Positions 1-33,636 of a DNA stretch of 52,110 nucleotides are shown piece after piece. The translations under genes were made by a program, and so were the position numbers. The first letter of the stretch is position 1. The number at the start of each line of letters is the position of its first letter. Under the pieces are notes generated by a model. It was not told the origin of the DNA, ran no database searches, and saw only the letters and a program-made list of their open reading frames with translations. Where the stretch lies: contig CALULP010000033.1 of the NCBI GenBank assembly GCA_944321495.1, forward strand, positions 1-52,110, written 5' to 3'. The stretch comes from an uncultured Bacteroides sp. (GTDB lineage Bacteria > Bacteroidota > Bacteroidia > Bacteroidales > Bacteroidaceae).

Positions 1-152
1 ATAGCAGCCATTTGTATTAGACTGCAAAGTTGAAAAATCAAGTCCGTTTCATTTTAAAAAACCGCGTAATTGACTATATTTCAATAATTTCAAAGAACTA
101 ATTATCCACTTTTACGGGACAGTAGTGGTTCTGAATAATTGTTTTTTACGTG

Positions 153-203
153 GGCGGTACTTGTTATTAAAATAATTTTGATATCTGATAGATAAGTGCC
201 GCC
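153..203 (+). promoter_or_regulatory. Leader of the first operon: -7 box inside a stem-loop
   Basis: The 223 bases before the first gene hold no convincing ORF. TAATTTTG at 173-180 fits the Bacteroidetes -7 consensus TAnnTTTG and would start a transcript near 186, about 38 nt before the ATG at 224. I see no clear TTTG -33 box. The box lies in the loop of an imperfect inverted repeat: GGCGGTACTTGTTAT (153-167) pairs with ATAGATAAGTGCCGCC (188-203). It could be an operator or a leader hairpin. The -7 box is seen; the regulatory role is inferred. Confidence 0.4.
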
Positions 204-223
204 TGCTTCTATTTTAACGTGTT

Positions 224-1219
224 ATGAAAATAATATCTTTGATTTTCGTTATATTATGTAGCTTAGTCGCTTGTACGCCATCTTCTGTAGTCGTTTTCCC
301 TATAGATGAAACTTTAACTCCTGAACTAATGCCTTTGCAGGGGGTAACAAGCCCTATGCGCGTAGAGATAAAACATCCGTATCTTATCGTTCAAAACGAT
401 AAACAAAACGACAGTTTGTTTCATATTTATAATCTTACTGATAAGAAGTTGGTAGGTGTTTTTGGACGTAAAGGTCAGGGACCGGGAGAATTCACTACTC
501 CTTGGTTGGTACAGACTTATCTGTCTGATTTAATAGTAGAAGATAATCATAAGTTTCATCATTATGAGTTTGATTCTTTAGGGCATCCTGTCCAAAAAGA
601 GTCTATGGAGGCTCAAACCGTAGTATCCATTGTGGCAGAGGCGGCTTTTATTAATGATTCTATTTTTGTAGTTGATGAAAGATATACCGGCCCCAATCTA
701 TATAAGTTTAATATGAATAGTGAAATTCCTCTTAAAAAGTTTTCTTATCGTACTCCTAATATGATTGATTTCTATGCGGATCCGCAAATGGGATATGTTG
801 TTGCAAATAATAAGCGCATTATACTTTGTCGCGGTTATAAAAAAGAAATTGAATTTATGGATACAGACTTTAATCTGATAAAAAAGATTTCTTTTGAATT
901 TGATAGTCCTACTGAAATAACCGGACAGAATCAAGGGGATGTAAATGTAAGTTATGATAATGCGTATTTGGGAGAGCACTACTTATACGTTTCTTGTATA
1001 GGAACTTCTTGGAATGAATACTATAAAAGGAATACGTATGGAAGTATAATTGAAGTATATGATTTGGATGGTAATCCGGTAGCCCGTTATACCTTAAATG
1101 GTAGACAGCCAATATATTTTGCTGTGGACGAGGAGACATATACCCTTTATGGCCCAGGTCCAGATGCAAATCCTGAAGATAATTTGTTAGTGTATCAATT
1201 GAAAGGTCTCTCAAAATGA
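224..1219 (+). CDS. BF3164-type six-bladed beta-propeller lipoprotein
   Basis: A 331-aa exported lipoprotein. The N-terminus is a signal peptide ending in the lipobox SLVAC, with acylated Cys at about residue 17. The rest resembles the TolB-like/BF3164 family of Bacteroidetes: a propeller blade motif, FGRKGQGPGEF, lies at residues 80-90, and blade-like repeats follow, such as the DLDGNPVARY stretch near the C-terminus. Family members are outer-membrane-anchored proteins of unknown biochemistry, often encoded beside thioredoxin-like lipoproteins and small secreted peptides. Here its TGA overlaps the ATG of the next gene by 4 bp, so the two are co-translated. The family call is fairly firm; the function is unknown. 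Confidence 0.8.
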   Translation: MKIISLIFVILCSLVACTPSSVVVFPIDETLTPELMPLQGVTSPMRVEIKHPYLIVQNDKQNDSLFHIYNLTDKKLVGVFGRKGQGPGEFTTPWLVQTYLSDLIVEDNHKFHHYEFDSLGHPVQKESMEAQTVVSIVAEAAFINDSIFVVDERYTGPNLYKFNMNSEIPLKKFSYRTPNMIDFYADPQMGYVVANNKRIILCRGYKKEIEFMDTDFNLIKKISFEFDSPTEITGQNQGDVNVSYDNAYLGEHYLYVSCIGTSWNEYYKRNTYGSIIEVYDLDGNPVARYTLNGRQPIYFAVDEETYTLYGPGPDANPEDNLLVYQLKGLSK

Positions 1220-1776
1220 TGAATGCTCGTGTAATAGTTTACATTGCCTGTGTAGCGATACTCTTATCATGCAGTGCTTGCAATGAGAAAAAACGGACGG
1301 AGAAAGAACTTGAAGTAGAGTTGCGGCAATTTAAGGAAAAGGCTATTCTTTTTCCTGATAATTTGCAGGCAGCCATATATGGAAGGCAGGAAGATCCCGA
1401 TACGACTTTGTTGCACCGTGTATGGAAAATGGTGGTATATGTGGATAAGAGCGGTTGCACGGGTTGCAAGCTAAGGACTTTATTGCCGGTTTATATGTTT
1501 ATGCTGGAAAATAAATCGGATAAGGATTTTGGCGTAGTTGTAATTTTGAATACTCCGGATAAAGAAGAAACTGCTCAAATGTTGACCGATTTACGCTTTC
1601 GTCATACCGTCTTTTTTGATGCGGATGGGGCCTTTGAACGGCTAAACCCTCAAATGCCTAAAAAAGAGGAATTTCACATGTTCCTGCTGAATGGAGAGAA
1701 TAAAGTCGTTTTAATAGGAAATCCTACCCATAATGAGAAACTGAATCGTCTTTATTTGTCTGCAATGAAAAATTGA
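1216..1776 (+). CDS. Thioredoxin-like lipoprotein with CxxC
   Basis: A 186-aa lipoprotein (lipobox LLSC or SAC, Cys 19 or 22). The middle reads MVVYVDKSGCTGCKLR, a beta strand followed by a CTGC motif at residues 81-84, as in the active site of thioredoxin-fold proteins. A later FHMFLLNGENKVVLIGNP segment looks like the cis-Pro/beta-hairpin half of the fold. An acidic-basic helix lies between signal peptide and domain. It probably acts in the periplasm or at the outer membrane as an oxidoreductase or disulfide handler; its partner is unknown. It overlaps the upstream propeller gene by ATGA. The fold call comes from motif reading; the substrate is not known. Confidence 0.75.
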   Translation: MMNARVIVYIACVAILLSCSACNEKKRTEKELEVELRQFKEKAILFPDNLQAAIYGRQEDPDTTLLHRVWKMVVYVDKSGCTGCKLRTLLPVYMFMLENKSDKDFGVVVILNTPDKEETAQMLTDLRFRHTVFFDADGAFERLNPQMPKKEEFHMFLLNGENKVVLIGNPTHNEKLNRLYLSAMKN

Positions 1777-1781
1777 AAAGG

Positions 1782-2660
1782 ATGGAAAGGAAAAAACAAA
1801 ATCTTGTGTGCAGATTGGTGAATGTTGCGGTTAACGTCTTATTCGGAATAGCCATTTTGATTGTAGGTTGGCTGTGCTTGCAGGTTTTTGTTTTTTCCTC
1901 CTTTCGCATTCCCAGCCGTTCGATGGAACCGGAGTTGACAATCAATGATTATGTATTGGTTTTAAAGCCGATTATCGGTCCTCGTATTTTCAATGTATTT
2001 GCATCACTAAGGGGAGAACAGGTCGCCATTTACAGACTGCCGGGTTTCAGGCGCATAAAGCGGAATGATGTGTTGGTCTTTAATAATCCCTATCCTGAAA
2101 GTCCGGATACGATGCAGATGCATATCCTTAAATATTATGTGAAGCGCTGTATTGGAATCCCCGGAGATACATTGTCTATTCAAAATGGTTATTTCCGTAT
2201 CAAAGGGGTGACTGACCGCTTGGGGCACTTGGCGTCGCAGGAGAAAATATCTAAAGAAACGAAAGAGGTGAAGATGGAAGACTGCTTTCCTCATGATAGT
2301 ATTGTGCGGTGGAATATGAAAAACTTTGGCCCGATGTATATACCGGGGCGGGGAGATTCTATTTCATTGGATATGATAAATGCAAAGTTGTATAAACAGC
2401 TTATTGAATGGGAAACGCAGGCAGACTTGCGCTTTCAAGATTCTTGTTGTTTTATTAATGGCGTGCGGATTGAGGGATATCGCTTTAAGAAGAACTACTA
2501 TTTTATGGCAGGTGATAATGGATTAGACTCACAAGATTCGCGTCATTGGGGATTGGTTCCGGAAGATTTTATTGTAGGAAAAGTGTGGTTAATATGGAAA
2601 TCTTATGATCCGTTTACCGGCAAATTCAGAAAAGATCGTTTTCTTAAAAAGGTGCATTAG
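1782..2660 (+). CDS. lepB: Signal peptidase I (S26 family)
   Basis: A membrane-anchored type I signal peptidase of 292 aa from the ATG at 1782; a TTG at 1773 would add three residues and overlap the previous stop. One transmembrane segment (about 12-35) precedes PSRSMEP with the catalytic Ser at about residue 47. The general-base Lys sits in YYVKRCIGIPGD at about residue 121, and the C-terminal box is YFMAGDNGLDSQDSRHWG. The long insert between the Lys box and the last box is usual for Bacteroidetes SPases. Chromosomes normally carry a housekeeping lepB elsewhere, so a copy inside this operon suggests a dedicated protease for a co-encoded or nearby secreted substrate (inference). Confidence 0.88.
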   Translation: MERKKQNLVCRLVNVAVNVLFGIAILIVGWLCLQVFVFSSFRIPSRSMEPELTINDYVLVLKPIIGPRIFNVFASLRGEQVAIYRLPGFRRIKRNDVLVFNNPYPESPDTMQMHILKYYVKRCIGIPGDTLSIQNGYFRIKGVTDRLGHLASQEKISKETKEVKMEDCFPHDSIVRWNMKNFGPMYIPGRGDSISLDMINAKLYKQLIEWETQADLRFQDSCCFINGVRIEGYRFKKNYYFMAGDNGLDSQDSRHWGLVPEDFIVGKVWLIWKSYDPFTGKFRKDRFLKKVH

Positions 2661-4508
2661 ATGGAAAAGCATTTATCAAGAGGGAATGTTTGTTTGTCAA
2701 TAAGGCTGTTATTGTTGATGTTGGCTATTGTTCTTGTAGGGTGTACTCTTTTTGTTATAACGCCCGAGTTGGAAGATAGCATGACCGTGGGAAAAGTTTT
2801 TTGGCTTCATTTATCTACATTATTATTGGCGGGATGTGCTGCTGTTGCATTTTTATGGGAACATCATCTTAAATATTTCTATTTTTCTATTGCTGATGGT
2901 TTGTTCTTGGCTTTTGCGGGTATTGTTTTGTTGACTTATGATTGGGAACTTAATCCGGCTCCTGAAAAACTGCTGTTTGGAGGGCAATTGTTGGTTTTGT
3001 GGTTTTTGTTGCGCTTGATGCTGAATCAATGGCCTCAGTTGTGCGAATATATTCTTCTCGTATTGGTCGTTACTGGTTTGGTGGAGAGTGTTTGGGGCGT
3101 TTTGCAGCTTTATGGGGTGGTGGCTTCTAATCATGGGATTTTTAGATTGACAGGTAGTTTTTATAATCCAGGGCCTTATTCCGGGTATTTGGCTTTGGTC
3201 CTTCCGATGTGTTTATGGAAGGTTTTATCTTATGATAGGAAAAATACATCAAGGCTTTTGGTAAACAAAATCATATATTATATGATGTGTGGCATTGCTT
3301 TGATGATATTGATAGTATTGCCTGCCGGTATGAGCAGAACGGCTTGGATTGCATCAATAATAGCTTGTGGTTGGGTTTATTGGTATAAATATGGGGCAAT
3401 GCAAGTTAAGGCTTTGTTAGAGAAATACAGAATAAAACCTATTGTTTTTTTCATTGGCTTGCTTTTCATAATAATAATGTTTGCATTCGGCCTTTTTGTG
3501 TTGAAAAAGGATTCTGCGTTAGGACGATTGTTGCTGTGGAAAGTTACAGGAAAAGCAATTATGGAACAACCTTTTACAGGTGTAGGATTAGGAGGTTTCC
3601 CGGTTGCTTATGCCGAGGCTCAAGCCAAATATTTTTCCTCCGGTAAGGCCTCTGGACCAGAAATATGGGTGGCGGATTGTCCGGATTATGCTTTTAATGA
3701 GTTTTTGCAGATAGGCTTGGAGCAGGGAATAATAGGATTATTGCTTTTTATGTTATTGCTATGTTATTCCATTGCAAGTGGTATTAGGGCTAAACAGATA
3801 GGGGTAGTCGGCAGTTTGTTGGCATTGATGATTTTCAGTTTGGCTTCTTATCCATTACAGTTGCCAGAGCTTTGGGTAGTACTGGTCTTTTTGTTGGCTG
3901 TTTCTAATAATGATGCCGGAAAGTTTAGATATGTTAGGAAGCGAAGCGCGGTTTTACTGATTATAGGAGGCTTGGGATTGTCTGCTTATGGATTTTGTAG
4001 TCATGGGTTGCAGTATTATCCTGCTTACAAGGAGTGGCGTTATGTGAAACAATTGCATAATGCAGGGATTGATGATTCTGTGATAGATGCATATACTAAT
4101 TTGACATTGCAATTGCCTCACAGGCCAGAATTGTTATTTGAAACAGCATTATGTTTTAATGGAGAAAAGAGATATGAACAAGCTACCCATTGGCTGTATC
4201 GGGCAATGAAGTTGAGCAATAATCCAATGATTTATTATGTTACTGCTCAAAATGAACAGTTAATGGGAAACTATCATCACGCAGAACGTCTCTTGTTACA
4301 TTCTATTCAGATGTTGCCAGAGAGAATATATCCGTATTATTTGTTGACTCAGTTATATTCTGATTCTTTATTTTTCCAAAAGGACAAATATTGTAAAGTG
4401 GCGAAATATGTGTTAGAGCATAGGCCTAAGGTCGAGAGCCCTGCAATTCAAGAGATGAGAAAGAAAGTTCAAGAGCATGTGACTAAGTTAAAATTACAAA
4501 TAGAGTGA
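2661..4508 (+). CDS. O-antigen-ligase-like (Wzy_C) membrane protein with C-terminal TPR
   Basis: A 615-aa polytopic membrane protein whose ATG directly abuts the previous TAG. Roughly eleven hydrophobic segments fill residues 1-440. Features typical of the WaaL/Wzy/PglL ligase family are the RLTGSFYNPGPYSGYLAL stretch, GMSRTAWIAS, and GVGLGGFPVAYAEAQ followed by a periplasmic loop and an ...FNEFLQIGLEQGIIGL segment. After the last membrane segment (about residue 450) comes a soluble region with TPR-like helical pairs such as RYEQATHWLYRAMKLSNNP. The family transfers or polymerises lipid-linked glycans, or O-glycosylates proteins. No glycosyltransferases are adjacent, so a protein-modifying or other non-O-antigen role is possible. 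Confidence 0.78.
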   Translation: MEKHLSRGNVCLSIRLLLLMLAIVLVGCTLFVITPELEDSMTVGKVFWLHLSTLLLAGCAAVAFLWEHHLKYFYFSIADGLFLAFAGIVLLTYDWELNPAPEKLLFGGQLLVLWFLLRLMLNQWPQLCEYILLVLVVTGLVESVWGVLQLYGVVASNHGIFRLTGSFYNPGPYSGYLALVLPMCLWKVLSYDRKNTSRLLVNKIIYYMMCGIALMILIVLPAGMSRTAWIASIIACGWVYWYKYGAMQVKALLEKYRIKPIVFFIGLLFIIIMFAFGLFVLKKDSALGRLLLWKVTGKAIMEQPFTGVGLGGFPVAYAEAQAKYFSSGKASGPEIWVADCPDYAFNEFLQIGLEQGIIGLLLFMLLLCYSIASGIRAKQIGVVGSLLALMIFSLASYPLQLPELWVVLVFLLAVSNNDAGKFRYVRKRSAVLLIIGGLGLSAYGFCSHGLQYYPAYKEWRYVKQLHNAGIDDSVIDAYTNLTLQLPHRPELLFETALCFNGEKRYEQATHWLYRAMKLSNNPMIYYVTAQNEQLMGNYHHAERLLLHSIQMLPERIYPYYLLTQLYSDSLFFQKDKYCKVAKYVLEHRPKVESPAIQEMRKKVQEHVTKLKLQIE

Positions 4509-4515
4509 TTAATTT

Positions 4516-6360
4516 ATGTGGAAAATATTTCTTTTATTATTATGTATATTGTCGAGCTGTCATAATCCTACAAAATTGGATGCAGCTTTAGATTTTGCGG
4601 GAGCAAATCGGAATGAATTAGAAAAAGTTCTTATACATTATAAGGATAGTGGCCTAAAGTATGATGCGGCACGTTTCTTGATAGAAAATATGCCGTATTA
4701 TTATTCTCACCAAGGAGTGGCATTAGATTCTGCTAAAATGGCTTTGATGACTGCTGATTCACATGGGATAATATCTAATACTCTGATTGAACGTTGGTCA
4801 TCTCCGGATAGTTTGAGTAAGATTTATGATGCCCATGTGATTAGTGCAGATTATATTATTCGAAATATAGATCATGCTTTTGTCAACTGGAAGAGACGTT
4901 CGTGGAATAAGTACCTCTCTTTTGAGGATTTTTGTGAGTTACTGTTGCCTTATCGGATTGGAGATGAACCGTTGGAGGATTGGCGTAGTGCTTATGAAAA
5001 GCGTTATGCGTTTTTGTTAGATTCAATTTATAAAGGGACTGATGTTATAGAAGCAACTACAGCCATTTGTCAACAATTAAAGAAAGAGGGGTTTGTTTAT
5101 AATTGGGAGTTTTCTACTCCTCATTTAGGGGCTTCTTTTTTGTTGGATCATCGTGCTGGGACTTGTGAGGATGCTTGTGATTTGACAATATACGTATTAC
5201 GAGCTTTGGGTATTCCTGTTGCCATTGATTGTTATACATATTCTCCGGAAACAAGGAAAGGTCATACTTGGAATGTGGTTAGAGATACTACTGGTGCGTA
5301 TCTTGGCGTTTGGTTTACAGAACGTTTACCAGAGCGAGGAAAAATTTATTCAGATGGTAGGAAAGCCGGGAAAGTATTTAGGAAACAATATGCCGCCCCT
5401 TTTTATAAAGATGTATCATCTGAGTATTATTCGGATACATTGGAATTAGATATTCATGATAATTCATTAGAACAGGTATATTTGGGCGTTTTTCATCCTG
5501 ACGGATGGGTGCCAATAGATTGCAAGCCAGTAATGGATGGAAAGGTCATGTTCCCCAATATAGAATCAAAGGCTGAATATATACTGCTAAAGAATTCTGA
5601 TGATAAATTTGTTACCATTGGATATCCTTTCTATTTTGATGGTCATAGTGTTTCTCACTATATCCCGGATTTATCTCAAAAAGAAACAGTGCGGCTTTAT
5701 CGCAAACAAACCTTGTTCAGTTGGATTTGGCATTATTTATGGGAATTGGATGGAGGTATATTTGAGTTCTCAAATCAAGAAGATTTTAGTAAAATTGAAT
5801 ATGCCTATAAGGTTCGGGGAGTACCACCTACTTGTCATAATGGTTTTGTGTGCTCTCCTTCTGTAATATGTCGTTTTATACGTTATCGTGCGCCTAAAGG
5901 CCGCAATACGGATATAGCGGAGTTATGTTTTTGGGACAGTAATGCATTAATAGATCCGGTATCTGTAAAAGGAGAACGTCCGGAAACTTCAAAAAGTCAA
6001 ATTGAAAAGGCTTTTGATAAAGAAATATTGTCTTCTTATACAACAATTGTACCTGGGGCAACGTTGTTCATGGATTTTGGCAGAGAGGTTGAAATCGACA
6101 GTGTGGCTTTTGTTGCACGTAATGACGATAATTATATACGCATTGGAGATACTTATGAATTGTTCTATTTTTCAGGTAAGAACGGTTGGGTATCATTAGG
6201 ACGTAAAACAGCTGTTGTACCTTGGTTGGAATATGACAATATGCCCGAGGGCGCTTTATTTCATTTGCGCTGCCTGACCCGTGGTGTGGAGGAACAAGTA
6301 TTTCACGTAGAGAATGGTAAACAGGTCTTTGTTAGTAATCAAGGGGTGCCAATAGAATAG
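4516..6360 (+). CDS. Transglutaminase-like (cysteine-protease fold) lipoprotein
   Basis: A 614-aa lipoprotein (lipobox ILSSC, Cys 15) starting 7 nt after the upstream stop. The core shows the transglutaminase/papain-like pattern: RAGTCEDACDLTIYVLRALG with nucleophile Cys about 217, GHTWNVV with His about 250, and an Asp about eight residues later. Such domains act as proteases, amidases or cross-linkers. Residues about 480-610 resemble a beta-sandwich of F5/8 (discoidin) type, with DFGREVEIDSVAFVARND. Nothing like a terminator follows. As the last gene of the five it could process or cross-link a surface substrate; that role is inferred, while the catalytic residues are visible. Confidence 0.75.
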   Translation: MWKIFLLLLCILSSCHNPTKLDAALDFAGANRNELEKVLIHYKDSGLKYDAARFLIENMPYYYSHQGVALDSAKMALMTADSHGIISNTLIERWSSPDSLSKIYDAHVISADYIIRNIDHAFVNWKRRSWNKYLSFEDFCELLLPYRIGDEPLEDWRSAYEKRYAFLLDSIYKGTDVIEATTAICQQLKKEGFVYNWEFSTPHLGASFLLDHRAGTCEDACDLTIYVLRALGIPVAIDCYTYSPETRKGHTWNVVRDTTGAYLGVWFTERLPERGKIYSDGRKAGKVFRKQYAAPFYKDVSSEYYSDTLELDIHDNSLEQVYLGVFHPDGWVPIDCKPVMDGKVMFPNIESKAEYILLKNSDDKFVTIGYPFYFDGHSVSHYIPDLSQKETVRLYRKQTLFSWIWHYLWELDGGIFEFSNQEDFSKIEYAYKVRGVPPTCHNGFVCSPSVICRFIRYRAPKGRNTDIAELCFWDSNALIDPVSVKGERPETSKSQIEKAFDKEILSSYTTIVPGATLFMDFGREVEIDSVAFVARNDDNYIRIGDTYELFYFSGKNGWVSLGRKTAVVPWLEYDNMPEGALFHLRCLTRGVEEQVFHVENGKQVFVSNQGVPIE

Positions 6361-6700
6361 GTTTTAAAGTATGAAAGAATAATCATGAAAGATGACAAGA
6401 ATAATTGCACTTTTGGTTGGAGAAGCCGAGAGAACGGTAATTGACTGTGTATTGGCATTCAGCGGTGTGAAAAGTACTTGTTCTTGCCTCAATATCTGTC
6501 CGTAGATTTTGATATGGACTGGTATAATGCATACATGTCGGCTATCAGGAGTGAAAGTCTTTACATCGCTGGGGCAGGAACTTGAATTGGGGTATAAAAA
6601 TCCGTAATATGTGCACAAATCCTGTGGGGGCAAACGGCTACTTTTGCATCAGGCTGTCGGATAGGGTCCGGTGGCCGGGTAATGTTTAAAGGTAAAGCTT
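6361..6700 (+). other. Intergenic stretch with a possible gene remnant
   Basis: There is no intact gene in 340 bases. One + strand frame runs from an ATG at 6392 through a single TAG at 6503-6505 to a TAA at about 6612-6614, and its sense reads like coding sequence (for example GVKVFTSLGQELELGYKNP before the TAA). Another frame of the same stretch is also open over about 45 codons. The antisense strand is open across the region as well, so openness alone proves little. It may be a decayed gene or chance. No promoter of good quality and no terminator hairpin was found for the operon ending at 6360. Confidence 0.3.
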
Positions 6701-7672
6701 ATGAAACGAATGTTTGGAAAATGGATCTGCCTTCTACTAACCTTCGCAGGGGTAGTCGGCGCAAATGCGCAAGGGACGCCGGGCGCGGCTTCCGGCACGG
6801 CGGGAGAACTGCCCAGGGTGTATATGTTCAAGGATATAAACTCCGCCAATCTGGTGAAAATCTATGAGGCATTGGGCCGCGAGGCCACGGGCAAGGTGGC
6901 CGTGAAGCTTTCGACGGGAGAGCCCGGCGGGCACAACTTCCTGCAACCTGCCCTGATAAAGGACTTGGCGCAGAAGGTGAACGGTACTATCGTGGAGTGC
7001 AACACGGCTTACGGCGGGAAGCGCGGAAATACGGCGGACCACATGCAGGCTGCCAAGGACCACGGTTTTACGGCGATTGCCAAGGTGGATATCATGGATG
7101 CGGACGGCAGCGCCAAGTTGCCGGTAAAGGGCGGTAAGCACCTCCCGTATGACCTGGTGGGCAAGCATTTCCTGGATTATGATTTTGTGGTGGTGCTGTC
7201 CCACTTCAAGGGGCACGCCATGGCAGGTTTCGGCGGGGCGCTGAAAAACATCTCCATCGGCATCGCTTCGTCGGAGGGGAAAACGCTGATACACTCCGGC
7301 GGCAAGAGCACTACCGACTGGGGAAGCCCTAAACAGGAAGACTGGCTGGAGAGTCTGGCGGAGGCTGCCAAGGCGGTCATGGACCATTGTGGCGACAATA
7401 TCCTTTATATCAGTGTGGCCAACAACTTGTCGGTGGACTGTGATTGCGACTCTTCTCCCGAGGACCCGAAGATGGGCGACATCGGCATCCTGGCTTCGCT
7501 TGACCCGGTGGCCTTGGACAAGGCTTGCACGGACCTGGTGCGTTCGTCCGAAGACCATGGGAAGATTCACCTGATAGAGCGTATCGACTCGCGCAAGGGC
7601 ATGCACACGCTGGACTATGCCGAACAGTTGGGCATGGGCAGCCAGAAGTATGAATTGGTCAAACTGGACTGA
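6701..7672 (+). CDS. Exported DUF362 domain protein
   Basis: A 323-aa protein with a cleavable signal peptide (hydrophobic 9-21, then ANAQG). The body matches DUF362: KVAVKLSTGEPGGHNFLQPALIKDLA, an ...ECNTAYGGKRGNT segment, the DYDFVVVLSHFKGHAMAGFGGALKNISIG core and a late D-x-D/Cys stretch VDCDCDSSPEDP. DUF362 proteins are often linked to iron-sulfur clusters or ferredoxin-like domains, but no CxxCxxC ferredoxin motif is present and the function is unknown. A small hairpin (CTGGCGG 7689-7695 with CCGCCAG 7705-7711) lies in the 77-nt gap before the next gene, which probably belongs to the same transcript. Confidence 0.8.
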   Translation: MKRMFGKWICLLLTFAGVVGANAQGTPGAASGTAGELPRVYMFKDINSANLVKIYEALGREATGKVAVKLSTGEPGGHNFLQPALIKDLAQKVNGTIVECNTAYGGKRGNTADHMQAAKDHGFTAIAKVDIMDADGSAKLPVKGGKHLPYDLVGKHFLDYDFVVVLSHFKGHAMAGFGGALKNISIGIASSEGKTLIHSGGKSTTDWGSPKQEDWLESLAEAAKAVMDHCGDNILYISVANNLSVDCDCDSSPEDPKMGDIGILASLDPVALDKACTDLVRSSEDHGKIHLIERIDSRKGMHTLDYAEQLGMGSQKYELVKLD

Positions 7673-7749
7673 AAGTGCTGATACGTGTCTGGCGGAGGGC
7701 CATGCCGCCAGGTGATACCCGATTTGTTTACTTGTTAAAAGACTGAGGC

Positions 7750-8574
7750 ATGAAGAAAATTATTTGTTTATCACTGATATTGTTATCTATAAATATTCAA
7801 AGCATGATGGCTCAAGAGAAAATTACGCAGACTGCCGGACGTGTGCAGTTGGGGGAGTTTGCCCCCAAGTTTGCCGAGTTGAACGATGATGTGCTTTTCG
7901 GCGAAGTGTGGAACCGCAAAGGACTTAGCCCGCACGACCGCAGCATGATAACCATTGCCACGCTGGTAGGCAAGGGCATTATAGACTCCTCGCTGACCCA
8001 CCACCTGCAATTTGCCAGGCAGAACGGGGTGACCCGTACCGAGATTGCTGAAATGCTGACCCACATTGCTTTCTATGCTGGGTGGCCCAACGCATGGGGC
8101 GCATTCCGCCTGGCCAAGGATGTGTGGGCGGACAGTGAGGCGGCCGATGGCGGCAAGGCGGCTTTCCAGCGGGAGATGATTTTTCCCATCGGCGAGCCCA
8201 ACACGGCATACGCCAAGTATTTCATCGGCAACAGTTACCTGGCGCCTATTTCCAAGGAACAGATTCCTTTCAACAATGTGACGTTTGAGCCGCGCTGCCG
8301 CAACAACTGGCACATCCACCACGCCACGAAAGGCGGCGGGCAGATGCTGGTGTGCGTAGCCGGCCGCGGATGGTACCAGGAGGAAGGCAAGCCTGCCGTG
8401 CAGATGCTGCCCGGCGATGTCATCCACATTCCTGCCAACGTGAAGCACTGGCATGGCGCGGCTGCCGACAGCTGGTTTGCCCACCTGGCCTTTGAGATTC
8501 CCGGCGAGAACGCTTCCAACGAGTGGCTTGAACCCGTGACCGACGCGGAGTATGACAAGCTGGAGGCACGCTGA
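7750..8574 (+). CDS. Carboxymuconolactone decarboxylase-cupin fusion, exported
   Basis: A 274-aa protein with a signal peptide ending at about MMAQ. Residues about 45-125 form a carboxymuconolactone decarboxylase/AhpD-like domain (LSPHDRSMITIATLVGKG, HHLQFARQNGVTRTEIAEML, AFYAGWPNAWGA). It lacks the AhpD CxxC, so peroxidase chemistry is unlikely. Residues about 165-255 are a cupin barrel with metal-type ligands in WHIHHA, the glycine-rich MLVCVAGRGWYQ, and PGDVIHIPANVKHWHG. Such fusions are common in Bacteroidetes and annotated only generically. It sits downstream of the DUF362 gene and upstream of a clear terminator. Substrate unknown. Confidence 0.85.
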   Translation: MKKIICLSLILLSINIQSMMAQEKITQTAGRVQLGEFAPKFAELNDDVLFGEVWNRKGLSPHDRSMITIATLVGKGIIDSSLTHHLQFARQNGVTRTEIAEMLTHIAFYAGWPNAWGAFRLAKDVWADSEAADGGKAAFQREMIFPIGEPNTAYAKYFIGNSYLAPISKEQIPFNNVTFEPRCRNNWHIHHATKGGGQMLVCVAGRGWYQEEGKPAVQMLPGDVIHIPANVKHWHGAAADSWFAHLAFEIPGENASNEWLEPVTDAEYDKLEAR

Positions 8575-25454: not shown

Positions 25455-26999
25455 ATGGCACAAGAAGACGTTTTTAAGAAGCTCGTTTCGCACTGCAAGG
25501 AATACGGGTTTGTGTTTCCCAGCAGCGAGATTTATGACGGGTTGGGAGCTGTGTACGACTATGGTCAGAACGGCGTGGAACTGAAAAATAACATCAAGCA
25601 ATACTGGTGGCAGAGCATGGTGTTGCTGCACGAAAACATCGTGGGCATCGACTCCGCCATCTTCATGCATCCTACCATCTGGAAGGCCAGCGGGCACGTG
25701 GATGCGTTCAACGACCCCTTGATTGACAACCGCGACTCGAAGAAACGCTACCGTGCGGATGTGCTTATCGAGGACCAGATTGCAAAGTATGACGAGAAGA
25801 TTGCCAAGGAGGTGGCCAAGGCTGCGAAGAAATATGGCGATGCGTTCAACGAACAGGAGTTCCGCAGCACCAATGCCCGTGTGTTGGAGCACCAGGCCAA
25901 GCGTGACGCTTTGCACGAACGCTATTCCAAGGCCATGAATGCGGGTCCCGACTTGAACGAGTTGCGCCAGATTATCCTGGATGAGGAAATTGTTTGCCCC
26001 ATCAGCGGCACGAAGAACTGGACGGAAGTGCGCCAGTTCAACCTGATGTTCTCCACCGAGATGGGCAGCACTGCCGATGGCTCGATGAAGGTGTACCTCC
26101 GTCCGGAAACGGCGCAGGGCATCTTTGTGAACTACCTGAACGTGCAGAAAACGGGCCGCATGAAGATTCCTTTCGGCATCGCGCAGATAGGCAAGGCTTT
26201 CCGCAATGAGATTGTGGCACGTCAGTTTATCTTCCGCATGAGGGAATTCGAGCAGATGGAGATGCAGTTCTTCGTAAAGCCGGGCACGGAGCTGGAGTGG
26301 TTCAAGACGTGGAAGGAAACCCGCCTGAAATGGCACAAGGCCCTGGGCTTTGGCGACGACCACTACCGCTACCACGACCACGAGAAACTGGCCCACTATG
26401 CCAATGCCGCTACGGACATCGAATTCCTGATGCCTTTCGGCTTCAAGGAGGTAGAGGGCATCCACAGCCGTACCAACTTTGACTTGAGCCAGCATGAGAA
26501 GTTCTCCGGCAAGAACATCAAATACTTCGACCCCGAAAGCAACGAAAGCTATACGCCCTACGTCATCGAGACATCTATCGGCGTAGACCGCATGTTCCTC
26601 AGCGTGATGTGTGCTTCCTACTGCGAGGAGAAGCTGGAGAACGGCGAGACGCGCGTAGTGCTGAAACTGCCTGCTGCCTTGGCTCCGGTGAAACTGGCCG
26701 TGTTGCCACTGGTAAAGAAAGACGGCCTGCCCGAGAAGGCACGCGAGATTATCGACGACTTGAAGTTCCACTTCCATTGCCAGTATGACGAGAAGGATTC
26801 TATTGGCAAGCGTTACCGCCGCCAGGATGCCATCGGCACGCCCTACTGCGTGACGGTGGACCACCAGACGCTGGAAGACAACTGCGTGACCCTGCGTAAC
26901 CGCGACACCATGCAGCAGGAGCGTGTGGCCATCAGCGAGTTGAATAACATCATTGCCGACCGTGTGAGCATCACTTCGTTACTGAAAACTTTGCAATAA
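25455..26999 (+). CDS. glyQS: Glycine-tRNA ligase, alpha2 class II type
   Basis: A 514-aa cytoplasmic glycyl-tRNA synthetase of the homodimeric class II type. The N-terminus (KEYGFVFPSSEIYDGLGAVYDYG) and IVGIDSAIFMHPTIWKASGHVDAF are diagnostic. Class II motif 2 is AQIGKAFRNEI ... FRMREFEQMEMQFF, and motif 3 is near the ETSIGVDRMFL segment. The C-terminal anticodon-binding domain (about 405-510) includes KLAVLPLVKKDGLP. Length is as expected. It is followed by a strong hairpin and then a DUF4827 lipoprotein gene on the same strand. Confidence 0.97.
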   Translation: MAQEDVFKKLVSHCKEYGFVFPSSEIYDGLGAVYDYGQNGVELKNNIKQYWWQSMVLLHENIVGIDSAIFMHPTIWKASGHVDAFNDPLIDNRDSKKRYRADVLIEDQIAKYDEKIAKEVAKAAKKYGDAFNEQEFRSTNARVLEHQAKRDALHERYSKAMNAGPDLNELRQIILDEEIVCPISGTKNWTEVRQFNLMFSTEMGSTADGSMKVYLRPETAQGIFVNYLNVQKTGRMKIPFGIAQIGKAFRNEIVARQFIFRMREFEQMEMQFFVKPGTELEWFKTWKETRLKWHKALGFGDDHYRYHDHEKLAHYANAATDIEFLMPFGFKEVEGIHSRTNFDLSQHEKFSGKNIKYFDPESNESYTPYVIETSIGVDRMFLSVMCASYCEEKLENGETRVVLKLPAALAPVKLAVLPLVKKDGLPEKAREIIDDLKFHFHCQYDEKDSIGKRYRRQDAIGTPYCVTVDHQTLEDNCVTLRNRDTMQQERVAISELNNIIADRVSITSLLKTLQ

Positions 27000-27004
27000 T
27001 TGCT

Positions 27005-27040
27005 TTTCCCGGCTTCCTGCACGAGAGGGAAGCCGGGAAA
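27005..27040 (+). promoter_or_regulatory. 13-bp perfect stem-loop between glyQS and the DUF4827 gene
   Basis: TTTCCCGGCTTCC (27005-27017) pairs exactly with GGAAGCCGGGAAA (27028-27040) around a 10-nt loop. No T-run follows (GATTAACCCCTTA), so termination is likely to be partial at most. It ends 20 nt before the next ATG. It may set lower expression of the downstream gene or mark a transcript 3' end. Confidence 0.55.
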
Positions 27041-27060
27041 GATTAACCCCTTATTTTTAT

Positions 27061-27711
27061 ATGAAGAAATCAATCTTTTGCCTGCTGCCTTTCCTGCTTT
27101 TCGTCGTCGGCGCCATGGTATCGTGCGAGGAAGTGGAAGAGGTCGGCGAGTATGACAACTGGCGCGAGCGCAACGAGGCGTTCATCGACTCCATCCGCAG
27201 GGAAACGGGCGAGGTGTATGTGGCTACGTCCGACGACCATCATCAGCTGGAGGAGGGACAGTTGTTTGCCATCCGTGACTTTTTTTCCAGCACGAACAAG
27301 AACGACTATTACATCTATTGCAAGAAGATAAAGGGGCTGGATGATTATACCCATGCTCGCCGTCCCTTGTTTACCGAGACGGCCAGTGTCTACTATTACG
27401 GCACCTTGATTAACGGCGTGAGCTTTGACGGCAATTTCAGCGGATACGGGGCTGCCGACCAGGGGTTCTTGGACAAGGATGATGAGGAGAAGGCACCTAC
27501 GGATTTCGATTCGCCCAACGAGTTTGCCATCAACGGCAGCCTTATCAATGGCTGGCGTATTGTTCTGCAATACATGTATGTGGGCGAACGCTGGATGGTC
27601 TACATCCCCTGGCAAAGTGCGTATGGCTCGAGCAGCACGGGCAGCATTCCGGGCTATTCGGCTTTGGCGTTTGATATCCGGTTGGAAGACGTGGTGGACG
27701 ATGAGGATTGA
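27061..27711 (+). CDS. DUF4827 lipoprotein with FKBP-like C-terminus
   Basis: A 216-aa lipoprotein (lipobox AMVSC, Cys 22). An N-terminal helical part contains NWRERNEAFIDSIRRET, typical of the linker of FkpA-like proteins. The C-terminal half reads like a divergent FKBP-type peptidyl-prolyl isomerase: ASVYYYGTLINGVSFDGNF, then MYVGERWMVYIPWQSAYGSSSTGSIPGYSALAFDIRL, which follows the usual FKBP pattern of W...iP...aYG......iP..s.L.F...L. Whether it still has isomerase activity is not readable. Family DUF4827 from memory; the FKBP resemblance is seen. Confidence 0.75.
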   Translation: MKKSIFCLLPFLLFVVGAMVSCEEVEEVGEYDNWRERNEAFIDSIRRETGEVYVATSDDHHQLEEGQLFAIRDFFSSTNKNDYYIYCKKIKGLDDYTHARRPLFTETASVYYYGTLINGVSFDGNFSGYGAADQGFLDKDDEEKAPTDFDSPNEFAINGSLINGWRIVLQYMYVGERWMVYIPWQSAYGSSSTGSIPGYSALAFDIRLEDVVDDED

Positions 27712-27747
27712 CAGTTCCCTTCTCTAAGGGCTGTTGGCGATATAACT

Positions 27748-27791
27748 ATGCGGGCTTCACGAGAGACGGTTGGTCTTCGTGAAGCCCGCAT
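27748..27791. terminator. Bidirectional terminator between DUF4827 gene and glmS
   Basis: ATGCGGGCTTCACGA (27748-27762) is the exact reverse complement of TCGTGAAGCCCGCAT (27777-27791), with a 14-nt loop. Short T-rich sequence follows on the + side (GGTTTTG). It lies between convergent genes and can serve both. Confidence 0.75.
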
Positions 27792-27817
27792 GGTTTTGAT
27801 AGGGCAGCGGTAGCCTG

Positions 27818-29659
27818 TCATTCCACTGTGACAGACTTGGCCAGGTTGCGGGGCTGGTCTACATCCTTACCCTTGCAGACGGCGATGTGGTAGGCCAGCA
27901 GTTGCAGGGGAATGGTGGTGATGAGGGGCTCGAGGCACTCGAGGACGGGAGGCAGGGCGATGCACTCGTCGGCCAGCGCGGAGATGCCGGTATCGCCTTC
28001 GGTGACCAGGGCAATGACTTTTCCCCGGCGCGACTTGATTTCCTGTATGTTGCTGATGACTTTGTCGTACAGCACGTTGCGGGTGGCAATCACCACTACG
28101 GGCATTTCGGTGTCGATGAGGGCGATGGGGCCGTGCTTCATCTCGGCGGCGGGGTAGCCTTCGGCATGGATGTAGGATATCTCCTTGAGCTTGAGCGCTC
28201 CCTCGAGGGCGACGGGGTAGTTGTAGCCCCTGCCCAGGTAGAGGAAGTTGTGGGCGTAGGTGAAGATGCGCGACAGTTGGCCGATGGCTTCATGCTGTGC
28301 CAGTACTTCCTTCATTTGTCCGGGGAGGGTGGCCAGCGCCTGTGCGATGGGGGCGGTGAGGGTAGCGGGCATGCCTTTCTCCTGCGCCAGGGCGAGGGCA
28401 AGCAGGGTGAGCACCGTGACCTGCCCCGTGAAGGCCTTGGTGGAGGCTACGCCTATCTCGGGGCCTACGTGGATGTACGAGCCGGTGTCGGTGATGCGGG
28501 TGAGGGAGGAGCCCACGGCGTTGCAGATGCCGTAGATGAAGGCTCCCTGCTCCTTGGCCAGCTGCACGGCGGCCAGGGTGTCGGCCGTCTCGCCGGACTG
28601 AGAGATGGCAATGACCACGTCGGTGGGCAGGATGACGGGCGTGCGGTAGCGGAACTCGGAGGCATACTCCACTTCGACGGGCATGCGGCACAGGCTTTCG
28701 ATGAGTTGCTTGCCTATCAGCCCGGCGTGCCACGAGGTGCCGCAGGCCACGATGATGAAGCGGCTTGCCGCCAGCAGGCGGTCGTGATGGTCGCGCACGG
28801 CGGAGAGGGTGACGCGGCCTGTCTCGGGATGGATGCGCCCGCGCATGCAGTCGTTGATGCAGTCGGGCTGCTCGAATATCTCCTTGAGCATGAAGTGGGG
28901 GTAGCCGCCTTTCTCCAGCTGGCCGAGGTTCATGGCCACGGTCTGCACGCGGGCGTCGACGTCCACGTTGTCCAGGTCGACGATGTGGAGGGGCGCGTCG
29001 CGGCGGATGATGGCTATCTCGTTGTCCTTCAGGTAGACCATCTGGTCGGTGTATTCCACGATGGGGGTGGCGTCGCTGCCTATGAAGTATTCGCCTTGGC
29101 CGATGCCTATGACGAGGGGGCTGCTGCGGCGTGCCACGAGCAGGGTATCGGGGTCGCGGCGGTCTGCCAGGGCGATGGCGTAGGCGCCGATGACCTCGCG
29201 CAGGGCCAGTTGCAGGGCGGTGAGCAGGTCGAGGTGGTTGGCGGCCTGCAGGTAGTCGATGAGTTGCACCAGGGCTTCGGTGTCGGTGCTGCTGCGGAAG
29301 GGGATGCCTTTCTGCTCGAGCCGTTGCTTGATGACGGCGTAGTTCTCGATGATGCCGTTGTGCACCAGGGCAAGGTTGCCCGAGGCCGACAGGTGCGGGT
29401 GGGCGTTGGCTTGCGAAGGCTCGCCGTGGGTGGCCCAGCGGGTGTGGGCAATGCCCGTCTGTCCGGCGAGGTCGTGCCCTGCGGCGGCGCGTTCCAGTTC
29501 GCTCACTTTGCCTGTGGCCTTGTACACGTTCAGTTGTCCCTGTGGGGTGACGAGGGCGACGCCTGCGCTGTCATATCCTCTGTACTCCAGTCTTTTCAAT
29601 CCTTTTACCAAGATGGGATATGCATCCCTTTTACCTATGTATCCTACTATTCCACACAT
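27818..29659 (-). CDS. glmS: Glutamine-fructose-6-phosphate aminotransferase
   Basis: A 613-aa GlmS that makes glucosamine-6-phosphate for peptidoglycan and LPS. The N-terminal glutaminase domain starts MCGIVGYIG with nucleophile Cys 2 and contains LEYRGYDSAGVAL and IAHTRWATHGEPS. Two SIS sugar-isomerase domains follow (about 290-430 and 460-600), with ACGTSWHAGLIGK, AISQSGETADT and KEISYIHAEGYPAAEMKHGP. The C-terminus DQPRNLAKSVTVE is standard. It is the last gene of a minus-strand run containing amino-sugar recycling genes, 38 nt after the kinase. No glmS ribozyme-like structure is expected in this phylum and none was seen in the short gap. Confidence 0.97.
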   Translation of the reverse strand: MCGIVGYIGKRDAYPILVKGLKRLEYRGYDSAGVALVTPQGQLNVYKATGKVSELERAAAGHDLAGQTGIAHTRWATHGEPSQANAHPHLSASGNLALVHNGIIENYAVIKQRLEQKGIPFRSSTDTEALVQLIDYLQAANHLDLLTALQLALREVIGAYAIALADRRDPDTLLVARRSSPLVIGIGQGEYFIGSDATPIVEYTDQMVYLKDNEIAIIRRDAPLHIVDLDNVDVDARVQTVAMNLGQLEKGGYPHFMLKEIFEQPDCINDCMRGRIHPETGRVTLSAVRDHHDRLLAASRFIIVACGTSWHAGLIGKQLIESLCRMPVEVEYASEFRYRTPVILPTDVVIAISQSGETADTLAAVQLAKEQGAFIYGICNAVGSSLTRITDTGSYIHVGPEIGVASTKAFTGQVTVLTLLALALAQEKGMPATLTAPIAQALATLPGQMKEVLAQHEAIGQLSRIFTYAHNFLYLGRGYNYPVALEGALKLKEISYIHAEGYPAAEMKHGPIALIDTEMPVVVIATRNVLYDKVISNIQEIKSRRGKVIALVTEGDTGISALADECIALPPVLECLEPLITTIPLQLLAYHIAVCKGKDVDQPRNLAKSVTVE

Positions 29660-29697
29660 GATATGTTGTTGTATTTATGGGTTATTTGTTTCGTTGT

Positions 29698-29799
29698 TCA
29701 TTCATTCGGCCACCCCTTCGAGTTAGGCTTAGGGCACCCCTCTGAGTTGGGCTTAGGGTACCCCTCCGAATGGGGCTTGGGGTACCCCTCCGAATTTCC
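29698..29799. repeat. 24-bp in-frame tandem repeat at the kinase 3' end
   Basis: About four imperfect copies of a 24-bp unit centred on GGGTACCCCTC/CGAATTGGGCTTA. Read on the minus strand they encode an 8-residue period: NSEGYPKP, HSEGYPKP, NSEGCPKP, NSKGWPNE. They form the last 32 residues of the kinase and run to its stop codon. Confidence 0.85.
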
Positions 29800-30633
29800 T
29801 GCTTGGTGGTAGGCCATGAGCCCTGCCAGCGGCGTGGGGGTGACGGTGCCTATGGTGATGCCTGCCTCGTGGGCGGCTTCGTGGAGTATCGGGCTGAAGT
29901 GGTGGGCGATGGAGCCGGCGAAGTGCACCGGGTAGCGGCGGTAGTCGTACTGCATGACGTTCCGTTGCAGGAAGGCGGTGAAGGCCTCCTTGACCGGCGT
30001 GCGGACGGCAGGGACGTCCAGGTGTGCCGCCAAGAACGGGGCGAGGCTTGCCAGGAAGCGGTTGGGCAGGGGCTGGCGGTACACGCGGTCGATGATGTCG
30101 GCCTCGGTCATGCCCAGGTGTTGCAGCAGGGCTTCTTTCAGTCCGGCGGGCAACAGGCCTTTCAGAGCATCGCCTACCAGCCGTTTGCCCAGGCAGGCGC
30201 CGCTGCCCTCGTCGCCCAGGATGAAGCCCAACGGGGGGACGTGGGCAGTGATGCTCCGGCCGTCGTAGTAGCAGGAGTTGGAGCCGGTGCCCAGTATGCA
30301 GGCTATGCCGGGCTGCCTGCCGCAGAGGGCGCGGGCGGCGGCCAGCAGGTCGGAGCAGACTTCCACCGTGCCTGTGACGGTGAGGTGGCGGCGCAGGGCG
30401 CGCTCCACTGCGGGGAGGGTATGCGGCAGGCAGCCCGCGCCGTAGAAGTGCAGTTCGTCCACCGGGCCGGCGCCCAAGGCGGGGAGCAGTTCGGTGGCCA
30501 CGATGCGTGCCATGTCGTCCTCCGTCTGGAAGAGGGGGTGGATGCCTTGGGTGGCTATCTGCCTGTGCCCGGTGCCAGTGTCCAGTACGACCCAGTCGGT
30601 CTTGGTGGCGCCGCTGTCTGCTATCAGTACCAT
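29698..30633 (-). CDS. murK: BadF/BadG-type amino-sugar kinase (MurK-like)
   Basis: A 311-aa kinase of the ASKHA fold. It begins LIADSGATKTDWVVLD (phosphate-1 loop), then FYGAGCLP, CSDLLAAARALCG, GIACILGTGSNSCYYDG and LGFILGDEGSGACLGK, all as in N-acetylglucosamine kinases and the BadF ATPase family. In Tannerella a homologous kinase, MurK, phosphorylates N-acetylmuramic acid and lies with a transporter and peptidoglycan enzymes, which is the setting here. The fold proper ends near residue 279; the rest is an unusual repeat tail (NSEGYPKP-like). Glycan kinase activity is well supported; MurNAc versus GlcNAc preference is inferred from context. Confidence 0.8.
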   Translation of the reverse strand: MVLIADSGATKTDWVVLDTGTGHRQIATQGIHPLFQTEDDMARIVATELLPALGAGPVDELHFYGAGCLPHTLPAVERALRRHLTVTGTVEVCSDLLAAARALCGRQPGIACILGTGSNSCYYDGRSITAHVPPLGFILGDEGSGACLGKRLVGDALKGLLPAGLKEALLQHLGMTEADIIDRVYRQPLPNRFLASLAPFLAAHLDVPAVRTPVKEAFTAFLQRNVMQYDYRRYPVHFAGSIAHHFSPILHEAAHEAGITIGTVTPTPLAGLMAYHQAGNSEGYPKPHSEGYPKPNSEGCPKPNSKGWPNE

Positions 30634-30635
30634 GT

Positions 30636-30720
30636 GGTTAGTGTTTAGTGGTTAGTGGTTAGTGGTTAGTGATTAGTGGTCAGTATGTATTAATCACTAA
30701 TCACTAACCGCTAACCGTTA
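30636..30720. repeat. TTAGTG-rich intergenic inverted repeat
   Basis: Repeats of GTGGTTA/GTGATTA fill the left side and their complements (TAATCACTAATCACTAACCGCTAACC) the right, giving a long imperfect hairpin in the gap between the kinase and the NagX-like gene. The sequence type matches the arms of the element at 34918-35055. Non-coding. Confidence 0.7.
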
Positions 30721-31923: not shown

Positions 31924-31955
31924 GGTGATGATGTGTGTTAAGTTAATAATGTGTT

Positions 31956-32022
31956 TTTAAGTTCTTTAGTTCTTTGGTTTTTAAGTTCTTTAGTTCTTTA
32001 GTTCTTTAGTTCTTTGTTTCTT
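31956..32022. repeat. AGTTCTTT tandem repeat between symporter and NagX-like gene
   Basis: Six or more near-identical copies of AGTTCTTT (often AAGTTCTTTAGTTCTTT) run through the 104-bp gap. Simple-sequence direct repeats, non-coding; copy number is likely to vary between strains. Confidence 0.75.
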
Positions 32023-32027
32023 GTCGG

Positions 32028-33533: not shown

Positions 33534-33544
33534 GGCGTGAGTTT

Positions 33545-33636
33545 GTGAGTTCTTTAGTTTATTAGTTTATGAGTTTATTAGTTCTTGAGTTCTTGAGTTC
33601 TCAATTCTTCATTCTTAGTTCTTCATTCTTCATTAT
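33545..33636. repeat. AGTTCTT / ATTCTTCATT repeat before the symporter gene
   Basis: AGTT(T/C)(A/T)TTAGTT- and GAGTTCTTGAGTT-type copies grade into ATTCTTCATTCTTAGTTCTTCATTCTTCATT, the last part identical to the right arm of the repeat at 22251-22282. It fills the gap between NamZ and the symporter, and its last bases overlap the 3' end of the NamZ gene. Confidence 0.7.

What the first reader, a model, noticed from the sequence alone, without database searches (positions are those of the whole stretch)
224..6360. Five-gene surface-processing operon with its own signal peptidase
Propeller lipoprotein, CxxC lipoprotein, signal peptidase I, an O-antigen-ligase-like/TPR protein and a transglutaminase-fold lipoprotein are coupled by overlaps or gaps of at most 7 bp and stand out as AT-rich. 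A dedicated signal peptidase with a redox protein, a ligase-type membrane enzyme and a cysteine-protease-type lipoprotein looks like a maturation line for a secreted or surface substrate. From memory, BF3164-type lipoproteins and thioredoxin-like lipoproteins co-occur in Bacteroides with short NVEALA-type peptides; such a peptide gene could lie just left of this window. The assembly as one system is inference.
Basis: partly seen in the sequence, partly recalled or inferred. Interest (0 to 1): 0.78.

Follow-up and report, generated by a model that had tools for sequence, protein, structure and literature searches.

The report
Bacteroidales peptide maturation and signalling system
Five adjacent genes in a Bacteroides-type bacterium match the processing core of a gene cluster that recurs in related bacteria beside genes for small cysteine-rich peptides; the core likely trims and folds these peptides for export, cells would sense one class of them, and our paper searches found no description of such a system.

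Summary
The five ORFs are real and tightly coupled. The window starts at a contig end inside an insertion sequence, so the peptide gene expected on the left cannot be read. Of 28 loci with full flanks, 23 have NVEALA and 18 have the other four families together. All 7 of 247 genomes with the peptidase also have NVEALA. Peptides share a leader ending in NVEALA; mature parts have paired cysteines and track the neighbouring propeller, leaders do not. One class sits beside a membrane regulator with an OmpR-type domain, with 10-11 bp direct repeats between them in 22 of 24 regions versus 68 of 337 controls. Likely: a secreted-peptide system with dedicated processing, cognate lipoproteins and autoinduction; cleavage, sensing and export are inferred. 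The Wzy_C protein lacks the ligase histidine.

The parts
1..127 (.). End of an insertion sequence (repeat); bases 1-41 on the minus strand correspond to the start of its transposase gene
   Evidence: 123-127 bp identical at five other contig ends of this genome (C16, C17, C18, C40, C32); 96% copy in relative G007 overlaps a 400-aa ORF with DDE_Tnp_1 and DUF4372
128..223 (+). 96-bp stretch between insertion-sequence end and gene 1; no ORF or part of a peptide gene seen
   Evidence: six-frame reading of bases 1-300
224..1219 (+). Predicted lipoprotein with TolB-like 6-bladed propeller (PROP)
   Evidence: PF15869 53 bits; relatives lie directly after NVEALA genes
1216..1776 (+). Predicted CxxC lipoprotein, thioredoxin-like, without the DUF1573 extension of many relatives (CXXC)
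   Evidence: no Pfam match; both Cys kept in 10 of 10 aligned relatives; profile weakly matches StoA and ResA (E 0.0015, 0.025)
1782..2660 (+). Signal peptidase I of a distinct Bacteroidales subfamily (LEP); alternative TTG start at 1773
   Evidence: PF10502, TIGR02227; Ser47 and Lys121 in 90 of 90; 35% identical to the ~500-aa signal peptidase of the same genome
2661..4508 (+). Membrane protein with Wzy_C domain and C-terminal TPR region, Phe-Asn-Glu in place of the His-Asn motif (WZY)
   Evidence: PF04932; profile matches TPR proteins of the PDB; F345, N346, E347 in 56 of 56; alignment to WaaL 7tpg
4516..6360 (+). Predicted lipoprotein with transglutaminase/cysteine-protease-like core and C-terminal CBM6/CBM32-like modules (TG)
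   Evidence: PF01841; C217 and H250 in 64 of 64; profile matches 2yb7 (E 3e-19) and 7blg (E 0.016); model pLDDT 90.7, core matches 3isr and transglutaminases

Best explanation
The five genes match the processing core of a peptide system that recurs across Bacteroidales, in which a dedicated signal peptidase likely cuts short cysteine-rich NVEALA peptides after the NVEALA motif, and the freed peptides would be bound by their own propeller lipoproteins, exported, and in one class sensed by a membrane-bound regulator. Shown here: gene content, recurrence, co-occurrence, the split into common leader and variable mature part, even cysteine numbers, the match between mature part and neighbouring propeller, the regulator beside one peptide class, and direct repeats in the DNA between them. 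Inferred: the leader keeps the peptide anchored in the inner membrane; the CxxC lipoprotein forms or proofreads its disulfides; the signal peptidase releases it; the transglutaminase-like and Wzy_C proteins modify, trim or attach it; the RND pump, where present, exports it; the class-P peptide is sensed in the periplasm by the regulator, which binds the repeats and raises transcription of the peptide gene. The window copy has the core but no readable peptide, regulator or pump; an insertion sequence sits where the peptide gene would be expected, so this copy may serve the genome's other NVEALA peptides or be cut off from its own.
For: Peptidase neighbourhoods: 79 loci, 28 with full flanks: NVEALA 23, CXXC 26, PROP 25, TG 22, WZY 22. 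L049 and L053 have NVEALA-PROP-CXXC-LEP-WZY, the window's order of its first four genes with a peptide in front. Co-occurrence: 7 of 7 peptidase genomes among 247, and 10 of 10 among 41 relatives, have NVEALA (10, 82). The next profile hit after the subfamily falls from 272 to 166 bits. Leader: Ala at -1 in 101 of 102 and -3 in 99; conservation falls from 4.24 to 1.12 bits across the inferred cut, fitting the -3/-1 rule of signal peptidase I (established knowledge). Cys even in 91 of 102, expected 48.4. Mature part tracks propeller (r 0.76; 0.40 after thinning), leader does not. Regulator: 26 of 29 within 700 bp of an NVEALA gene; class P 20 with / 4 without, others 7 / 96; direct repeats 22 of 24 versus 68 of 337.
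Against: No cleavage, export or sensing was measured. The motif lies about 25 residues after the hydrophobic core, far for a signal peptidase, and 85 of 102 linkers hold a permissive alternative site. NVEALA occurs without the peptidase: 6 of 13 NVEALA genomes of the 247 draw, three of them solid, and 3 of 13 among the 41 relatives. 5 of 28 full-flank peptidase loci lack a detected NVEALA. Rank correlation of mature part and propeller over all pairs is low (Spearman 0.14). The pump genes also occur in 3 of 31 relatives without the peptidase. The window itself has no NVEALA match.
Confidence: 0.6

Rival explanations
1. The housekeeping signal peptidase cuts the NVEALA peptides and this subfamily acts on something else, for example the cluster's other exported proteins; gene proximity reflects shared regulation or a shared insertion spot.
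For: NVEALA without the subfamily in three solid genomes (G094, G137, G267); permissive ordinary sites in 85 of 102 linkers; some peptidase loci without NVEALA (L069, L083, L108, L116, L119).
Against: 10 of 10 and 7 of 7 peptidase genomes have NVEALA (34, 42). Gln at +1 in only 19 of 102, whereas most signal peptidase I substrates of Bacteroidetes expose Gln (PMC5837995, abstract). The motif is far more constrained than a -3/-1 rule needs.
Confidence: 0.2
2. The unit is a glycan-attachment operon: the Wzy_C protein transfers a lipid-linked glycan to the peptides or a lipoprotein, and the transglutaminase-like protein with its carbohydrate-binding modules works on the glycan side.
For: PF04932; CBM6/CBM32-like modules; PglL enzymes are often adjacent to their protein targets (PMC3643930, passages).
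Against: The His of characterised ligases is Phe in 56 of 56 (role of that His: PMC3643930 and PMC12800693, passages). By the listing no glycan-synthesis families were looked for, so this is only partly tested.
Confidence: 0.2
3. The peptides are bacteriocins and each propeller lipoprotein is the immunity protein; the regulator senses stress or peptide as in bacteriocin loci.
For: One-to-one peptide/propeller pairs that travel together; several variable peptides per locus.
Against: No killing data; propellers are not known immunity proteins (recalled); double-glycine leaders of bacteroidetocin type are absent in these peptides. Not exclusive of the main reading.
Confidence: 0.3
4. The window copy is a relic: the insertion sequence cut off promoter, regulator and peptide, and the five ORFs no longer form a working unit.
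For: Insertion-sequence end 96 bp before gene 1; no NVEALA match on C33 and no close HlyD relative there.
Against: All five frames are open, catalytic residues of the peptidase and transglutaminase core are kept, and the genome has NVEALA peptides elsewhere.
Confidence: 0.25

Closest known systems
NVEALA peptides (Pfam PF14055)
   Same: The peptides beside this peptidase subfamily match PF14055
   Different: Pfam gives a family without a function; the peptidase, cognate propellers, regulator and repeats are not part of it. The window itself has no NVEALA gene
Dedicated signal peptidases such as SipW of Bacillus (recalled)
   Same: An extra signal peptidase I encoded beside its likely substrates
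   Different: Substrates here would be a family of small cysteine-rich peptides with an inferred cut far from the hydrophobic core
Bacteriocin loci with inducing peptide, sensor and peptide/immunity pairs; bacteroidetocins in Bacteroidetes (PMC6671954, start of abstract in listing)
   Same: Several variable small peptides, each with a partner gene, plus a regulator beside one peptide class
   Different: Sec-type leader ending in NVEALA instead of a double-glycine leader; one membrane protein instead of kinase plus response regulator; RND pump genes instead of a peptidase-ABC exporter (last two by what searched for)
ToxR/CadC-type membrane regulators
   Same: OmpR-type DNA-binding domain in one protein with a periplasmic domain
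   Different: Reverse order: helix, periplasmic domain, helix, DNA-binding domain at the C-terminus; ToxR and CadC have the DNA-binding domain first (recalled)
O-antigen ligase WaaL / O-oligosaccharyltransferase PglL
   Same: Wzy_C domain
   Different: Phe replaces the His of the ligases in 56 of 56; C-terminal TPR region

Membership tests
Signal peptidase I (S26) | Peptidase_S26/TIGR02227 match over cut-off and Ser/Lys dyad | tested here: met
   101.8 bits (cut-off 22.9) and 102.6 bits (cut-off 47); Ser47 and Lys121 in 90 of 90
NVEALA family PF14055 | A PF14055 match in the window | tested here: not met
   10 matches in the genome, none on contig C33; the window is the processing core only
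NVEALA family PF14055 | PF14055 peptides with this peptidase subfamily in the same genome | tested here: met
   7 of 7 and 10 of 10 peptidase genomes (10, 82)
O-antigen ligase / PglL | Wzy_C domain | tested here: met
   61 bits, cut-off 31.7
O-antigen ligase / PglL | His required in WaaL and PglL (H338, H349; PMC3643930 passages) | tested here: not met
   Phe at that aligned position in 56 of 56; the alignment to 7tpg is weak (E 0.011) though it spans the motif
Transglutaminase-like superfamily | PF01841 match and catalytic Cys and His | tested here: met
   27.3 bits, cut-off 23; C217 and H250 in 64 of 64. Activity not testable here
Thiol-disulfide oxidoreductase (StoA/ResA type) | Thioredoxin fold with CxxC | tested here: inconclusive
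   CxxC kept in 10 of 10; profile matches StoA at E 0.0015 and ResA at 0.025; no Pfam match of the window protein
BF3164-type lipoprotein | Match to a named model | tested here: inconclusive
   PF15869 only; no NCBIfam hit for the window protein
Bacteroidetocin-type bacteriocin | Double-glycine leader | tested here: not met
   Leader ends in ALA in nearly all of 102 peptides (Ala at -1 in 101)
ToxR/CadC-type regulator | OmpR-type winged helix joined to a membrane-spanning periplasmic domain | tested here: met
ToxR/CadC-type regulator | N-terminal DNA-binding domain (recalled) | tested here: not met
   DNA-binding domain at residues 260-354 of 361

The most novel reading that the evidence does not exclude
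A Gram-negative peptide-pheromone system of a new kind: class-P NVEALA peptides, freed by a dedicated signal peptidase I and held by disulfides, are sensed in the periplasm by a reverse-order ToxR/CadC-like regulator that binds 10-11 bp direct repeats at the peptide promoter, and switch on a battery of further NVEALA effector peptides, each with its own propeller lipoprotein as receptor or immunity protein, exported by an RND pump.
Probability: 0.4. Interest if true: 0.92.

Novelty: categorically new. Interest (0 to 1): 0.82.

Why it matters
NVEALA peptides are numerous in some Bacteroidales (10 matches in this genome; 16 in relative G014), yet no paper in the held library contains the word NVEALA. 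If the reading is right, bacteria that are major members of the gut community have a Sec-dependent peptide system with its own processing enzyme, cognate lipoproteins and a built-in sensor. That would make peptide communication or antagonism in Bacteroidales directly testable, with predicted peptides, cut sites, receptors and DNA sites in hand.

Tried and rejected
Looking left of base 1 failed: contig end and repeat. A cut-off peptide ORF in bases 1-223 was looked for and not found. Rfam gave no match in the window at gathering scores, ARAGORN no tRNA. Sigma-70 and terminator scans of bases 1-7800 were near background (28 found, 22.2 expected, sd 5.4; 5 found, 6.1 expected). Shared words across regulator promoters were barely above shuffles (top 7-mer in 11 of 25 regions, shuffle maximum 9); only the per-locus repeat test was clear. 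The own genome's repeat word was not found again in the other own loci fetched nor in the window, apart from weak 3-mismatch places, so a regulon beyond the peptide promoter is not shown. Co-variation of peptide and the regulator's periplasmic part is not clean: the leader correlates too (0.40 versus 0.53). In the fold searches the DNA-binding domain filled the list, so the regulator's periplasmic domain stays untested; it was not folded alone. For the transglutaminase-like protein the whole-model TM-scores are low (0.15-0.32), so only the core is used. The window's propeller has relatives L007:3681, L056:5206 and L045:6262 whose upstream peptides look alike (C-[YW]-x(2)-[IV] ... YC-G ... S-x-C), a hint at the missing peptide's type, but the closest relative L062:18279 (51% identity) has no such peptide directly upstream.

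Papers: 'NVEALA' 0 papers; BF3164 and 6-bladed terms 8 listed; signal peptidase and lipoprotein terms 81 found, 20 listed; four-term joint search 0; propeller, RND and small-ORF terms 6; PF14055, PF15869, DUF5128 terms 5 (their titles are on malaria parasites and enzyme models); pheromone terms 34 found, 12 listed; small secreted and cysteine-rich terms 41 found, 8 listed. By titles and abstract starts none of the listed papers describes this cluster. Preprints and most subscription papers are not held, so 'not in print' goes no further than these searches.
Full report
OBSERVATION. Pfam gives PF15869 propeller, no family, PF10502, PF04932 and PF01841. The block is AT-rich. The window is one whole contig of a 2.74-Mb genome in 45 contigs. 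The genus is probably Bacteroides: relative G014, marked same genus, has a contig of the same length (691,802) as the B. fragilis S82 contig behind L110. Bases 1-127 recur at five other contig ends. A 96% copy in relative G007 overlaps the start of a transposase ORF with DDE_Tnp_1 and DUF4372. So an insertion sequence ends 96 bp before gene 1, and what lies beyond cannot be read.

A SECOND CLUSTER IN THE SAME GENOME. Contig C10 holds a CxxC protein, a 43% identical signal peptidase, an NVEALA peptide (42.9 bits), a propeller, a 55% identical transglutaminase-like protein, a second NVEALA-like peptide and a 39% identical Wzy_C protein, and runs into HlyD, RND, outer-membrane-factor and second RND genes. 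The genome has 10 NVEALA matches on 8 contigs, 9 of them over the Pfam cut-off and one with an internal stop. Around the matches away from C10, the six loci in which the peptide ORF was recovered all have a propeller or CxxC gene next to or near it; at C6, the match with the stop, no peptide ORF was recovered.

RECURRENCE. A profile of 15 relatives brought 79 loci in named Bacteroidales genomes (Parabacteroides, Tannerella, Bacteroides, Phocaeicola, Proteiniphilum, Massilibacteroides and others; the best 80 of 366 were kept, so the set leans to close relatives). Same strand, within 10 kb, of 79: PROP 62, WZY 57, CXXC 51, NVEALA 47, TG 46, HLYD 26, RND 25; many loci are cut by contig ends. Of the 28 with 9.9 kb on both sides: CXXC 26, PROP 25, NVEALA 23, TG 22, WZY 22, HLYD 13, RND 13; PROP+CXXC+TG+WZY together 18, with NVEALA 17. 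The five without NVEALA are L069, L083, L108, L116 and L119. A common layout is [NVEALA, propeller] repeated, then CxxC, transglutaminase-like, signal peptidase and Wzy_C genes, often followed by HlyD-RND-OMF-RND, but order and content vary. L049 and L053 read NVEALA, propeller, CxxC, peptidase, Wzy_C: the window's first four genes in order, with the peptide in front. The gene after an NVEALA gene is a same-strand propeller in 89 of 117 cases, median gap 68 bp.

CO-OCCURRENCE IN GENOMES NOT CHOSEN BY LOCUS. In a draw of 247 Bacteroidales genomes the peptidase subfamily (13 copies, 272-464 bits) is in 7, and all 7 have NVEALA. The next hits are 166 bits (G174, a 224-aa frame) and 152 bits or less, mostly on ~450-630-aa frames. 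NVEALA is in 13 of 247, so 6 have it alone: G094, G137 and G267 over the cut-off, G074, G125 and G229 with one weak match each. Of 41 relatives 10 have the peptidase, all 10 have NVEALA; G005, G007 and G011 have NVEALA alone. The HlyD orthologue at >=55% identity is in 8 of those 10 and in 3 of the other 31, so the pump goes with the system but not only with it.

THE PEPTIDES. 102 unique peptides with a clear motif (12 of 114 had none or were cut) have a basic and hydrophobic start, a linker and the consensus L-S-D-L-A-L-A-N-V-E-A-L-A. Ala stands at -1 in 101, at -3 in 99, Asn at -6 in 95; conservation falls from 4.24 to 1.12 bits across the inferred cut, and Glu stands at +3 in 82. Mature parts have a median of 37 residues, with 9.6% Cys against 0.9% in the leader. 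The Cys number is even in 91 of 102; 48.4 expected, maximum 66 in 5000 draws. Ala-Leu-Ala fits the -3/-1 rule of signal peptidase I (established knowledge). Gln stands at +1 in 19 of 102, whereas most signal peptidase I substrates of Bacteroidetes expose Gln (PMC5837995; abstract and section list seen). Against the cut: the motif lies about 25 residues after the hydrophobic core, and 85 of 102 linkers hold a permissive alternative site.

COGNATE PROPELLERS. For 73 peptide-propeller pairs the similarity of mature parts tracks that of the adjacent propellers (r 0.76; 0 of 2000 permutations; 0 of 2000 within-locus swaps, maximum 0.60) while leaders do not (-0.02). After thinning similar propellers r is 0.62 (63 pairs) and 0.40 (47 pairs), 0 of 1000 permutations each, and leaders stay near 0. 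The rank correlation over all pairs is low (0.14), so the signal comes from the related pairs. A common leader with a pair-specific mature part is what one expects if shared machinery reads the leader and the propeller reads the mature part (inference).

THE ENZYMES. The peptidase keeps Ser47 and Lys121 in 90 of 90 and is 35% identical to the ~500-aa signal peptidase of the same genome. The CxxC protein resembles StoA and ResA weakly. The transglutaminase-like protein keeps Cys217 and His250 in 64 of 64 and ends in CBM6/CBM32-like modules. The Wzy_C protein has Phe, in 56 of 56, where WaaL has the His of its His-Asn motif; that His is important in WaaL and conserved in PglL (PMC3643930) and the proposed catalytic residue (PMC12800693) (passages). 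Ligase chemistry should not be assumed.

HOW IT WOULD WORK (inference). The leader holds the peptide in the inner membrane, the CxxC lipoprotein sets its disulfides, the dedicated peptidase releases it. The propeller lipoprotein binds the mature part as receptor, carrier or immunity protein, and the pump exports it. Class-P peptide is sensed in the periplasm by the regulator, which raises transcription of the peptide gene. The roles of the transglutaminase-like and Wzy_C proteins are the weakest part. The window has only the core; its relation to a peptide rests on the related loci.

VERDICT. Observation confirmed; interpretation partly supported and extended. The parts belong to known families. 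As a system it missed tested features of O-antigen ligases and of double-glycine bacteriocins, and the paper searches named in Tried and rejected listed no description of it.

Noticed in passing
L008, G000:C8 about 128917-129860: A 311-aa signal-peptidase-like protein next to the ~500-aa signal peptidase has Gly at the positions aligned to the catalytic Ser and Lys: a possible inactive partner.
   Followed up: partly
L026:5553-8259: A C10-family peptidase gene with a Spi-type inhibitor domain and a serpin gene lie between NVEALA and signal peptidase copies.
   Followed up: no
L026:5319-5450 and L028:8942-9148: Short pieces of a signal peptidase gene (43 and 68 aa) lie upstream of full copies, suggesting duplication and decay.
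   Followed up: no
L027:7638-9515 (relatives in L030, L031): A 626-aa protein with glutaminase A, DUF5127 and DUF4964 domains sits between transglutaminase-like and signal peptidase genes in three loci.
   Followed up: no
L007:160-930: Many CxxC relatives carry a C-terminal DUF1573/HYDIN-like domain that the window's protein lacks.
   Followed up: partly
L116 and L119 (Phocaeicola): A reduced form, CxxC-peptidase-transglutaminase-like, follows a 760-770-aa unknown protein and shows no NVEALA gene.
   Followed up: no
G000:C6:12538-12666: An NVEALA match with an internal stop, possibly a pseudogene; not recovered as an ORF.
   Followed up: no
window 26000-45000: G+C rises from 45-47% (23-26 kb) to 55-64% (26-45 kb); cause not examined.
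   Followed up: no
window 6701-8574: Next genes after the operon: a DUF362 protein and a carboxymuconolactone decarboxylase/cupin protein, higher in G+C; not part of the cluster as far as seen.
   Followed up: no
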